Positions 49,673 to 54,269 of a stretch of 64,000 nucleotides of DNA are shown here, one piece after another. The stretch's first letter is position 1; every line of letters starts with the position of its first letter. Origin of the DNA: Streptomyces sp. NBC_01689 (GTDB lineage Bacteria; Actinomycetota; Actinomycetes; Streptomycetales; Streptomycetaceae). A model generated the notes under the pieces. That model was not told the DNA's origin and did no database searches. It saw only the letters and a list, made by a program, of their open reading frames with translations. The translations under genes were made by a program, and so were the position numbers. The stretch spans positions 1,240,001 to 1,304,000 of the forward strand of contig NZ_CP109592.1 in the NCBI RefSeq assembly GCF_036250675.1, read 5' to 3'.

Positions 49673-49870
49673 TTGAGAACCTCCGGCGCGCGGTACACCT
49701 TGCTCGACGGCACGGTCGCCGAATGCGACATGCAGCGTGAGTCCGCCGGTGATCGCCCCGTTGTTTCCGCCGCGATGAACGAAACGGTCGCTATAGAACT
49801 CCATGCTGCGCACCGGGAGGAGAACCCCGATTCGGACGAGGAAGCCGTCGTGGTGATCGCGCGCAGTACC
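49673..49870 (+). pseudogene. 5' part of an unidentified ORF interrupted by the composite transposon
   Basis: The frame reads YTLLDGTVAECDMQRESAGD and SDEEAVVVIARST, then reaches the transposon. Its continuation lies at 54270-54332. Precise excision of one target duplication copy and the transposon gives ...VVVIARST-QEPVVVNLPSL... to a stop. The start is uncertain (TTG at 49673 is only the left limit of the open frame). No family was recognised. Confidence 0.7.
49861..49870. repeat. Target-site duplication of the composite transposon, left copy (GCGCAGTACC)
   Basis: This 10-bp sequence directly precedes the outer end of ISAs1 copy 1 and recurs at 54260-54269 directly after the outer end of copy 2. 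Confidence 0.9.
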
Positions 49871-51220
49871 CAAGGCTTCGGCGTAGTCGGGTGATGTCCG
49901 GTTCGTGGTGATCCGCTGGCGCGGTGGCGGCCGGGGAACGTGACAGGCACGGGCTTCCAAGATCATGGAGTTCTCGACGCCCCGTGATCCGACTGGAAGA
50001 CCGTGCCTGCCGACGCATCATCCCTGATCCCGCCTGCTCTTGACCAGCTCCGGCAGCAGCCCGGGGTCGCTTCCGAGGAGGTTCCGGACCTGCTGGAACG
50101 TCTGGCCGAGGTGCCGGACCCGCGTGATCCGCGCGGCGTGCGTCATGCGCTCGCCGTCGTACTGGCCCTCACCGCGTGCGCCGTACTGGCCGGGGCGACC
50201 TCGCTCCTAGCGGTCGGCGAGTGGATCGCCGACGCTCCCGCGCACGTGCTCGACCGGCTCGGCGTCCGTCCCGATCCGCTCCAGCCCCGGTGGTCGCTTC
50301 CCTCGGAGACCACGGCCCGCCGGCTGCTGGCCCGCATCGACGGCGACGCGCTGGACCGGGCGGTCGGCAGCTGGCTCGCCGACCGCCGCCCACCGGCACA
50401 CGGCCTCCGGGGGCTGGCCGTGGACGGTAAGAGCCTGCGCGGTGCCGCCAGAGCCAAGGGCCGGAAAATCCACCTTCTGGCCGCGCTGGAGCACGGCACC
50501 GGCGCCGTCCTGGCCCAGCTGGACGTGGGCGAGAAGACAAACGAGGTCACGCGCTTCCAGCCACTGCTGGACACGGTCACAGACCTCGCCGGAGTGGTGG
50601 TCACCGTCGATGCGCTCCACACCCAGCGCGAGCACGCCGAGTACCTCCGGGGCTGGCAGGCCCACTACGTCGTGATCGCAAAAGGCAACCAGAAGAAGCT
50701 GCACCGGCAGCTGAAGTCCCCTCCCTTGAAGGACATCCCACTCCAGGGCGGCACCAGGGGAGTCGGACACGGACGCTCCGAGATCCGCCGGAGCAAGGTC
50801 GCGACCGTGAACAACCTGCTCTTCCCCGGAGCCCGTCAGGCCGTCCAGATCAAGCGCCGCCGCACCGACCGCAAGACCGGCAAGACCACGATCAAGACCA
50901 TCTACGCGGTCACCAGCCTGACCGCCGAGCAGGCCGGTCCCGCCCAACTCGCGAAGCTGGTCAAAGACCACTGGCAGGTCGAGGCCCTGCACCACGTGAG
51001 AGACACGACCTTCGCCGAGGACGCCTCCCAGCTCCGGACCGGCAACGCACCCCGGGTCATGGCCACTTGGCGCAACCTCGCCATCGGAGCCCTACGAGCG
51101 CACGGCACCAAGAACATCGCCGCCAGCCTCCGCCACAACGCCCGCGACCCTCACCGCCCCCTCGCACTCCTCGGCCTCGCATGATCACGAAGGGCGAGGC
51201 TGGACTACGCCGAAGCCCTG
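49871..51220 (+). mobile_element. ISAs1-type insertion sequence, copy 1 (intact)
   Basis: The copy spans 1350 bp from the left inverted repeat (49871-49888) to the matching right end at 51203-51220. It carries an uninterrupted transposase gene. No direct duplication flanks this copy alone. Confidence 0.82.
50003..51184 (+). CDS. tnp: ISAs1-family transposase, intact
   Basis: A 393-residue DDE transposase with no stops. The N-terminal DNA-binding region reads PDLLERLAEVPDPRDPRGVR. The catalytic Asp is in GLAVDGKSLRGAARAKG and the second Asp in VVVTVDALHTQREHAEYL. The YVVIAKGNQKKLH segment is the usual family block, and Glu lies in HWQVEALHHVRDTTFAEDAS. The GTG start at 50003 gives VPADASSL, the same N-terminus as copy 2. 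It can probably mobilise the copies and the whole composite. Confidence 0.92.
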   Translation: MPADASSLIPPALDQLRQQPGVASEEVPDLLERLAEVPDPRDPRGVRHALAVVLALTACAVLAGATSLLAVGEWIADAPAHVLDRLGVRPDPLQPRWSLPSETTARRLLARIDGDALDRAVGSWLADRRPPAHGLRGLAVDGKSLRGAARAKGRKIHLLAALEHGTGAVLAQLDVGEKTNEVTRFQPLLDTVTDLAGVVVTVDALHTQREHAEYLRGWQAHYVVIAKGNQKKLHRQLKSPPLKDIPLQGGTRGVGHGRSEIRRSKVATVNNLLFPGARQAVQIKRRRTDRKTGKTTIKTIYAVTSLTAEQAGPAQLAKLVKDHWQVEALHHVRDTTFAEDASQLRTGNAPRVMATWRNLAIGALRAHGTKNIAASLRHNARDPHRPLALLGLA

Positions 51221-51334
51221 AGCGTGTTGACTTCAAGGCACCCAGGCCACGTGTGATCATATCGCCACAGCGAAGGGTCCTCGCTTTCCATTTCCTCTGC
51301 CCCCCGATGCGCATGAGTGAGAGGAATTCATTCC

Positions 51335-53039: not shown

Positions 53040-54223
53040 GTGCCTGCCGACGCATCATCCCTGATCATTCCTGCCCTTGACCAGCTCGGCCCGCACCCGG
53101 CAGCCACCGACACCGAGGTCCCGGGCCTGCTGGAACGCCTCGCCCAGGTCCCCGACCCACGTGATCCACGCGGAGTGCGGCACCCACTGGTGACGGTGCT
53201 CGCCCTGACCGCGTGCGCGGTCCTCGCCGGGGCGAGATCCCTGCTGGCCGTGGGCGAATGGGTCGCCGACGCGCCGCCCACCCTGCTCGAGCGGCTCGGC
53301 GGCAGGGTCGACCCGCTGTTTCCGAAACGGGCCTGGCCCGCGGAATCCATGATCCGGCGCCTGCTCGCGAGGGTCGACGCGGACACCCTGGACCACGCGG
53401 TCGGCGCCTGACTCGCCGACCGGCAGGCCAAGAGCGATGGGCTGCGCGGGCCGGCCGTCGACGGGAAGTCGCCGCGTGGTGCGGCCCGCGCGAAGGGACG
53501 GAAGATCCACCTCCTGGCCGCGTCCGACCACGGGAACGGCCTGGTCCTCGCCCAGCTGGACGTCGGCGAGAAGACCAACGAGATCACCTGCTTCCAACCG
53601 TTGCTGGACACACTCCCGGACCTGGCGGGCACGGTCGTGACCAGCGACGCGATGCACACCCAGGACGACCACGCCACCTACCTGCTCAAGCGGGACGCCC
53701 ATTACATCGTGATCGCGAAGGGCAACCGGAAAAAGCTTCGCAAGCAGCTCAGGTCTCTTCCCTGGGAGCGGATCCCGCTTCAGGACTGAACTCGGACCAC
53801 CGGTCACGGCCGCCACGAGATCCGGCGGCTGAAGGTCTGCACGGTGAGCAACCTGCTCTTCCCCAGCGCCCGCCAGGCCATCCAGATCGTCCGCCGCCGC
53901 GTCAGCCGCAAGACCGGGAAGATCAACCTCAAGCCTGTCTACGCGGTCACCAGCCTCACCGCCGAACAGGCCACCCCCGCTCAACTCGCCACACTGATCC
54001 GGCGGCACTGGACCATGGAGGCCCTGCACCACACGTGAGAGACGTGACCTTCGCCGAGGACGCCTCCCAACTGCAGATAGGGAACGCTCGTCGCGCGATG
54101 GCGGCCTGCAGCAACCTCGCGATCGGTGCTCTCCGCCCGGCCGGCGTCCGCAACATCGCCTCCGGCCTCCGCCAGGCAGCCCGGGACCAAACCCGACCCC
54201 TCACCCTTCTCGACCTCACATGA
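53040..54223 (+). pseudogene. ISAs1-family transposase, copy 2, inactivated
   Basis: The copy shares long blocks with copy 1 (VPDPRDPRGVRHPL, AARAKGRKIHLLAA, YVIVIAKGN-type segment) but is broken. TGA at about 53409 replaces a Trp codon in AVGA(W)LADRQ, TGA at about 53787 follows LQD, and a two-base insertion near 54034 (HHT then stop) shifts the frame before DVTFAEDASQLQIGN. Catalytic-region residues include AVDGKSP and VTSDAMHTQ. Only the right end matches copy 1 clearly; I could not find a good left inverted repeat of this copy. Confidence 0.9.
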
Positions 54224-54259
54224 TCAAAAAGGGCGAGACTGGACTACGCCGAAGCCCTG

Positions 54260-54269
54260 GCGCAGTACC
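54260..54269. repeat. Target-site duplication of the composite transposon, right copy (GCGCAGTACC)
   Basis: This is identical to 49861-49870. It directly follows the right outer end of the transposon. Confidence 0.9.

What the first reader, a model, noticed from the sequence alone, without database searches (positions are those of the whole stretch)
49861..54269. Composite ISAs1-type transposon with an intact target duplication that splits a readable ORF
The 10-bp sequence GCGCAGTACC occurs immediately outside both outer ends (49861-49870 and 54260-54269), while neither copy alone has matching flanks. Deleting one duplication copy plus the element joins VVVIARST to QEPVVVNLPSL in one frame ending at a stop. 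The unit is about 4.4 kb and carries one exported Dyp-like gene. This shows directly that two IS copies moved together as a passenger-carrying transposon.
Basis: seen in the sequence. Interest (0 to 1): 0.85.

Follow-up and report, generated by a model that had tools for sequence, protein, structure and literature searches.

The report
Two-IS transposon carrying a peroxidase-like gene
Two distantly related copies of a bacterial jumping gene, one of them dead, sit on either side of a peroxidase-like gene and appear to have jumped into a Streptomyces chromosome together, and related elements in other Streptomyces turn out to carry passenger genes in the same way.

Summary
GCGCAGTACC occurs only twice in the window, abutting the outer ends of a 4,389-bp unit: intact ISAs1 element (IS1) – DUF7405 gene – decayed ISAs1 copy (IS2). 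Empty sites exist: in 15 of 19 non-own loci examined a cupin reading frame runs straight across the junction. Corrections: the two IS are different elements (72% nucleotide identity); IS2 has five stops, a frame break and no recognisable inner end; the 'readable ORF' is only the last ~40 codons of that cupin gene fused to rearranged scrap. As IS2 is dead while the duplication is perfect, IS1's transposase most likely moved its own left end together with IS2's right end. The cargo has a predicted DyP-peroxidase fold but no GxxDG motif. Following this up, I tested 380 inverted-repeat pairs in 55 related loci: 18 have matching flanks (0 of 1,520 shifted controls). Twelve are extended units of 1.8–5.4 kb with perfect 10-bp duplications, eight of them with a Pfam-recognised passenger; five are plain IS; one belongs to a distant subgroup. 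So this Streptomyces ISAs1 group repeatedly mobilises passengers, and the window is one case.

The parts
49861..49870 (+). left copy of the 10-bp target duplication GCGCAGTACC
   Evidence: the counterpart, with substitutions, lies inside one uninterrupted cupin frame in relatives
49871..51220 (+). IS1: complete ISAs1-family element, 1,350 bp, with left and right inverted repeats 49871-49888 and 51203-51220
   Evidence: relatives L035, L038 and L073 have the same layout with 10-bp duplications
50003..51184 (+). intact IS1 transposase reading frame, 393 aa, DDE_Tnp_1 plus DDE_Tnp_1_assoc
   Evidence: Pfam; NCBIfam NF033564 transpos_ISAs1, 178 bits, cut-off 70
51221..51334 (+). upstream region of the cargo gene; similarity to Streptomyces olivochromogenes (L005) starts at 51222, two bases past the last base of IS1
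51335..52888 (+). passenger gene, 517 aa, DUF7405 (PF24152), twin-arginine N-terminus, predicted DyP-peroxidase-like fold
   Evidence: dN/dS 0.27-0.36 against six relatives
52981..54259 (+). IS2: decayed ISAs1-family copy (alignable from 52981); left inverted repeat not recognisable, right end 54242-54259 intact
   Evidence: (4 TGA, 1 TAG, frame break)
54260..54269 (+). right copy of the 10-bp target duplication
49807..49870 (+). left half of the host cupin remnant
   Evidence: Cupin_2 in the intact relative
54270..54332 (+). right half of the host cupin remnant, up to its stop codon

Best explanation
The 4,389-bp segment is a passenger-carrying transposon of the ISAs1 group. IS1 had come to lie about 110 bp upstream of a DUF7405 gene and another, 28% diverged ISAs1 copy (IS2) downstream of it in the same orientation. 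IS2 lost its reading frame and its inner end. IS1's transposase then paired its own left end with IS2's surviving right end and moved everything between them into a cupin gene, duplicating 10 bp. Shown: the anatomy, the perfect duplication, the empty sites, the single occurrence of both IS and cargo in this genome, and no sign of mosaicism outside the last ~60 bp. Inferred: that IS1 supplied the transposase, that IS2 was already dead at the time, and the order of the steps.
For: Only two GCGCAGTACC sites, both at the outer ends. Uninterrupted cupin frame across the junction in 15 of 19 non-own loci, with the neighbouring LLM-gene 3' end in the same order in G020. IS1 transposase frame intact, IS2 broken. 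IS1's and IS2's right ends match at 30 of the last 31 bp, while IS2's inner left end scores 10/18, at background. IS2 is nearest to L035 or L036 in all ten alignment windows (tied with IS1 in the last), IS1 nearest to the other lineage in the first nine. Cargo homology in L005 begins at IS1's inner edge. No other IS1/IS2 copy found in the genome. Twelve extended units with perfect 10-bp duplications among 55 related loci, so remote-end mobilisation is common in the loci tested.
Against: No second insertion site of the same unit was seen: no whole-unit match is listed for 100 relatives (at most a few candidates scored per genome), and none of 14 other cargo-bearing stretches has the IS. The near-identical cargo protein P0001 (98%, Streptomyces sp. 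OV198) could not be seen in context. In the last 61 bases IS1 and IS2 are as close to each other (87%) as to any relative, so an exchange at the extreme right end is not excluded. A 10-bp duplication would also be left by a resident single IS that later acquired the rest by recombination. Transposase activity cannot be tested here.
Confidence: 0.87

Rival explanations
1. A single ISAs1 copy inserted in the cupin gene and made the duplication; later a circle or fragment carrying the cargo and another ISAs1 recombined into it, leaving two IS copies inside the old duplication.
For: It would leave the same outer duplication, and such recombination is well known for IS-bearing circles (general knowledge). 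IS1 and IS2 are closest to each other in the last 61 bases (87%).
Against: It predicts chimeric IS copies. In nine of ten 150-column windows IS1 is nearest to its own lineage, and IS2 is nearest to L035 or L036 in all ten (one tie). At ~72% identity homologous recombination is unlikely (general knowledge).
Confidence: 0.07
2. The unit began as a transporter IS: one left end, the DUF7405 gene, IS2's transposase and IS2's right end; IS1 later replaced or landed at its left end.
For: Several relatives have that layout, with the inner left end at or near background (L043, L045, L150). IS2's inner end is likewise at background.
Against: No leftover end lies outside IS1 (the duplication abuts it) or at its inner edge, where cargo-upstream DNA continues at once. 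IS1 would have had to replace the old end exactly.
Confidence: 0.05
3. The flanking 10-mers match by chance and the two IS inserted independently.
For: Neither IS alone has matching flanks, as would be seen after rearrangement.
Against: Chance 3.4e-6, and relatives lack the whole segment, with one uninterrupted reading frame in its place.
Confidence: 0.01

Closest known systems
Composite transposons (for example Tn5 with IS50, Tn6097 with two ISPfe2 copies)
   Same: Two IS of one family flank a passenger, and the duplication lies at the outer ends only. Tn5 and Tn6097 seen in passages of PMC9330008, Tn6097 also in passages of PMC3281130.
   Different: Tn6097 has two identical ISPfe2 copies and Tn5's IS50 copies differ by one nucleotide (passages). 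Here the copies are 28% diverged, one is dead and lacks its inner end, so the unit has ends from two lineages.
Transporter IS (tIS): IS derivatives with passenger genes inside one pair of ends
   Same: Related units such as L036, L037, L043, L045, L117, L132, L150 and L153 look like this: one transposase (broken in some), extra DNA, one pair of ends, 10-bp duplication.
   Different: The window unit has two transposase copies. tIS as described in passages of PMC9330008; no ISAs1 example was named in the passages seen.
[quoted passage not shown]
   Same: An ISAs1-family element joined to passenger-bearing mobile DNA; seen only as a title in the reference list of PMC9330008.
   Different: By its title the module is driven by IS1247a, not by the ISAs1 element; the paper itself was not read.
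ISArsp11, ISAs1 family, Arthrobacter plasmid pA58H3 (PMC6305408)
   Same: Passage: inverted repeat beginning CAGGGCT and a 10-bp direct repeat GGAACAGCAC.
   Different: 1,306 bp and no passenger genes according to that table.
DyP-type peroxidases
   Different: About 10-16% identity; no Dyp Pfam or NCBIfam match; GxxDG motif absent here and present in 2 of 90 aligned rows (motif recalled).

Membership tests
ISAs1 family | ISAs1 transposase | tested here: met
   IS1: NF033564 at 178 bits, cut-off 70; IS2: 67% identical to it, with stops
ISAs1 family | 8-10 bp target duplication (recalled) and inverted repeats beginning CAGGGC | tested here: met
   10 bp here and in relatives; right end CAGGGC, left end CAAGGC; ISArsp11 in PMC6305408, passage
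Composite transposon | two IS of the same family flanking a passenger | tested here: met
Composite transposon | duplication at outer ends, none across a single IS | tested here: met
   10/10 outer, 2/10 for IS1 alone
Composite transposon | empty target site without the segment | tested here: met
   15 of 19 non-own loci read through the junction
Composite transposon | near-identical IS copies (usual, not essential) | tested here: not met
   72% nucleotide identity
Composite transposon | mobilised by the transposase of at least one copy | not testable with these tools
   IS1 reading frame intact, activity unknown
Transporter IS | one transposase plus passenger within one pair of ends | tested here: not met
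   the window has two transposase copies
DyP-type peroxidase | DyP fold | tested here: met
   predicted model only, mean pLDDT 66, pTM 0.74; the 50 rows shown by each search are nearly all titled DyP or EfeB peroxidases
DyP-type peroxidase | GxxDG motif with the distal Asp (recalled) | tested here: not met
   absent in the cargo, found in 2 of 90 aligned rows
DyP-type peroxidase | heme binding and peroxidase activity | not testable with these tools
   needs assay

The most novel reading that the evidence does not exclude
Streptomyces ISAs1 elements form a modular gene-carrier system: ends from diverged lineages are interchangeable, dead copies or lone ends serve as second ends, and gene cassettes with their own end (such as the DUF7336 module, on the left of one IS lineage in L036 and on the right of another in L037/L117) are shuffled between transposases. 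Decay of the inner end then fixes the enlarged unit as a transporter IS. The window, with two transposase copies and one decayed inner end, is an intermediate of that route.
Probability: 0.5. Interest if true: 0.6.

Novelty: new variant of a known kind. Interest (0 to 1): 0.42.

Why it matters
The locus itself is a clean natural record of a composite transposon whose two ends come from diverged elements, one of them dead. The wider result matters more. In this Streptomyces ISAs1 group the enlarged units with perfect duplications outnumber the plain IS among the loci tested (12 to 5), carry varied genes, and arise repeatedly on the transposase tree. That makes the group a usable model for how plain IS become gene carriers, with possible stages (inner end intact, half decayed, gone) side by side, and it means that annotating these elements as 1.35-kb IS can miss their cargo.

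Tried and rejected
Chance duplication: rejected. Chimeric IS copies from recombination: no switch of lineage found outside the last 61 bases. Same unit elsewhere: not found in plasmids (22 records, none covering 80%), not listed for 100 relatives, nor around the cargo in 14 other cargo-bearing stretches, of which L008 and L082 appear to be one contig. Cargo in viral contigs: none. The first structure model of the cargo was unusable (34 rows, pLDDT 36.6); the second, with 90 rows, was used. Solved-structure search by sequence gave nothing for the single protein and one immunoglobulin at E 0.33 for the profile, taken as chance. NCBIfam scan of 34 cargo relatives: twin-arginine signal in 19, otherwise chance-level matches in one or two members each, including Shiga-toxin A-subunit models in one member each at E 0.03-0.17; not followed. 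H4/L014, where two ISAs1 copies also lie about 4.4 kb apart, is not a second case: the second copy is cut and no outer duplication was found. G055/L071 with two copies has none either. The inner-end test has a loose background (best score in random 130-bp stretches 8-14, mostly 10-12), so scores of 13 or less for L150, L045 and L043 say only 'decayed or absent'; it was run on six units with left-hand passengers and three with right-hand passengers, not on L128, L140 or L153. The DUF7336 matches are only just above Pfam's cut-off (25.9-28.3 against 25), and in L125 only the TPR matches exceed their cut-off. Not found in print: the searches (open-access full text only) and the passages read showed no passenger-carrying ISAs1 element of Streptomyces; ISfinder was not available.

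Full report
What is there. The window lies at 1,240,001-1,304,000 of contig 1 of a 9.96-Mb, two-contig genome. Between two copies of GCGCAGTACC (49861-49870 and 54260-54269, the only two in the window) lie 4,389 bp. From left to right: IS1, 49871-51220, a complete ISAs1-family element with both inverted repeats and an intact 393-aa transposase frame; a 517-aa reading frame, 51335-52888; and IS2, a second ISAs1 copy in the same orientation, alignable from 52981 to 54259.

The two IS are different elements. Overall nucleotide identity is 72% and protein identity 67%. IS2 has four TGA and one TAG codons within the matched part and its C-terminal part is in another frame. A relative of IS2 on a plasmid (L035) has a left repeat CAGGGCTTCGGCGTAGTC 71 bp before the point where the alignment to IS2 starts; in the window the best score at that place is 10 of 18, which is background. 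By contrast the outer right end of IS2 matches IS1's right end at 30 of the last 31 bases. In ten windows of 150 alignment columns IS2 is nearest to L035 or L036 each time, and IS1 is nearest to the other lineage in nine. In the last window, which holds 61 bases of IS1, IS1 and IS2 are 87% identical, as close as either is to any relative, so exchange there cannot be judged.

The duplication is real. The chance of ten matches at given ends is 3.4e-6. The only 10-mers repeated at that spacing in the window are the three that make up this one 12-bp run. Ten bp is what single copies of this group make where the flanks are preserved: CCCCCTGGGG in L035, GGTGGAGCCG in L038, GCCCGAAGCC in L073, 9 of 10 in L040; several other single copies have no matching flanks. 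A table in PMC6305408 (passage) gives a 10-bp repeat for the Arthrobacter ISAs1 element ISArsp11.

Empty sites. The left flank (49547-49870) matched, in whole or part, 94 of 295 genomes of the window's genus, its own included. Twenty loci were kept, one of them the window itself. In 15 of the other 19, the match runs straight across the joined junction; the other four (L024, L032, L033, L034) match other parts of the flank. In all 15 an open frame with VIAR(S/T)TQE crosses the junction, and 14 of the 15 also carry the upstream HHHG stretch of the cupin. The counterpart of the 10-mer differs by one or a few bases. In G020 the frame is a complete 158-aa Cupin_2 protein. There the region downstream of the cupin also matches the 3' end of the neighbouring luciferase-like gene, in the same order as in the window. 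In the window only 49807-49870 and 54270-54332 of the cupin gene remain. The stretch before 49807 is a 75-bp piece of a YceI-like gene on the other strand, 96% identical to a copy at 1,221,110-1,221,184 of the contig.

The cargo. Pfam assigns DUF7405; all 34 members of a relative alignment match it. The search found 3,307 related proteins among 7,993 candidates scored, the nearest (98%) from Streptomyces sp. OV198. The gene is rare in the genus: 3 of 392 genomes in one draw and 4 of 394 in a family-wide draw, the window's own genome included in both (E <= 1e-60). None of 14 other stretches with the gene has IS1 or IS2. In Streptomyces olivochromogenes (L005) similarity to the window begins at 51222, two bases past the last base of IS1, as expected if IS1 once inserted just upstream of this gene. 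A predicted model (mean pLDDT 66, pTM 0.74) gives, among the 50 rows shown by each search, almost only chains titled DyP or EfeB peroxidase. The GxxDG motif of DyP enzymes (recalled) is absent, and present in only 2 of 90 aligned rows, so the activity is doubtful. dN/dS against six relatives is 0.27-0.36, a little above the 0.19-0.31 among the relatives: a constrained gene, with no statement possible about the time since insertion.

Mechanism. IS2 cannot encode a working transposase, yet its outer end bounds a perfect duplication and the IS1 copy alone does not. The simplest account is that IS1's transposase used its own left end and IS2's right end. That IS2 was dead beforehand is inferred from its heavy decay next to an unchanged duplication; ten bases are a weak clock.

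Beyond the window. I tested whether such remote-end units are unusual. In 55 loci (40 of the roughly 100 places listed, mostly those most similar to the IS1 transposase, though a dozen or so similar fragments were left out; plus 12 plasmid and 3 genome loci fetched earlier) I listed all outward-facing pairs of the 18-bp end (13 or more of 18) 0.9-13 kb apart: 380 pairs. Eighteen have flanks matching at 9 or 10 of 10; with shifted flanks, 0 of 1,520. One (L115) belongs to a distant ISAs1 subgroup. Of the other 17, five are plain 1.34-1.35-kb IS (L035, L038, L040, L073, L118) and twelve are 1.79-5.36 kb: L036, L037, L039, L043, L045, L117, L125, L128, L132, L140, L150, L153. The remaining loci gave no matching pair, through age, truncation or short flanks, so the 12:5 ratio is not a genus-wide rate. 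Their contents: DUF7336 gene (L036, L037, L117; just above cut-off); an MFS transporter gene region (L039, whose transposase is interrupted by an IS3-like element); an unassigned 241- or 285-aa frame (L043, L045); DUF2975 (L150, scanned as L058); an APH_6-type kinase domain (L153, scanned as L059); a MmyB-like regulator, an alpha/beta-hydrolase, a cupin and an F420-reductase-like gene (L132); TPR frames and a weak NTPase match (L125); two transposase copies in opposite orientation (L128); nothing recognised (L140). The IS3 label for L039 is my reading of the frames, not a family scan.

Two facts show that such units move repeatedly. L037 and L117 are the same 1.8-kb unit (84% over the whole length) with different duplications, and so are L043 and L045 (87%). 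And on a transposase tree of 19 rows, some of them partial, plain and extended units are mixed: at least five changes are needed, all forced by well-supported branches, no fewer than for shuffled labels (mean 4.5-4.6). Where tested, the inner end scores 17/18 in L132, 16 in L039 and L037, 15 in L036, 14 in L117, and at or near background (10-13) in L150, L045, L043, L125 and the window, which looks like stages of one process. The 450-bp DUF7336 module of L036 is 90% identical to that of L037 but sits at the opposite end of a different IS lineage.

Verdict. The finding is right in substance: a composite ISAs1-type transposon that moved as one. By itself that is a known kind of element. What lifts it is that its two ends come from different, diverged IS, and that it belongs to a group in which passenger-carrying units are common among the loci tested. 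I found no description of this in the open-access text searched.

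Noticed in passing
window 49731-49805: 75-bp antisense piece of a YceI-like gene, 96% identical to a second copy ~19 kb before the window (contig position 1,221,110-1,221,184), next to the start of the cupin remnant at about 49807.
   Followed up: partly
window 49547-49730: Scrap between the MmyB-like regulator and the YceI piece; a 29-bp stretch (49701-49729) is listed at 93% in 14 other genomes, perhaps an old transposase remnant.
   Followed up: no
window 54484-58179 against G020 (L050 141-4569 and 5041-5138): The luciferase-like gene to regulator block is present in G020 with a second, inverted fragment of the luciferase-like gene 3' end beside the cupin, suggesting an inversion between the two arrangements.
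   Followed up: partly
L036 2479-4276, L037 3001-4792, L117 5870-7671: A DUF7336 gene module with its own terminal repeat is attached to the left end of one ISAs1 lineage and the right end of another, each time with a perfect 10-bp duplication.
   Followed up: yes
L132 2320-7043: 4.7-kb ISAs1 unit with four genes between an 18/18 outer end and a nearly complete-looking IS, flanked by CCTTGGAGGT on both sides.
   Followed up: partly
L039 1583-5876: ISAs1 unit on a Streptomyces plasmid carrying an MFS transporter region, its transposase interrupted by an IS3-like element, flanked by CGTTCAAGAG on both sides.
   Followed up: partly
L128 4751-7229: Two ISAs1 transposase copies in opposite orientation inside one pair of ends with a 10-bp duplication GGTCCGTTGG.
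   Followed up: no
L153 4792-7195 (same place as L059): ISAs1 unit with an APH_6-type kinase domain gene and ends beginning CAGGGCTTCGTCGTTCTCGCG, a variant end sequence kept on both sides.
   Followed up: no
window 51335-52888: Cargo relatives at 61-70% identity in Ktedonobacteria and about 25% in haloarchaeal plasmids, 5 of 15 listed of those annotated as Dyp-type peroxidase: a patchy, probably transferred family.
   Followed up: partly
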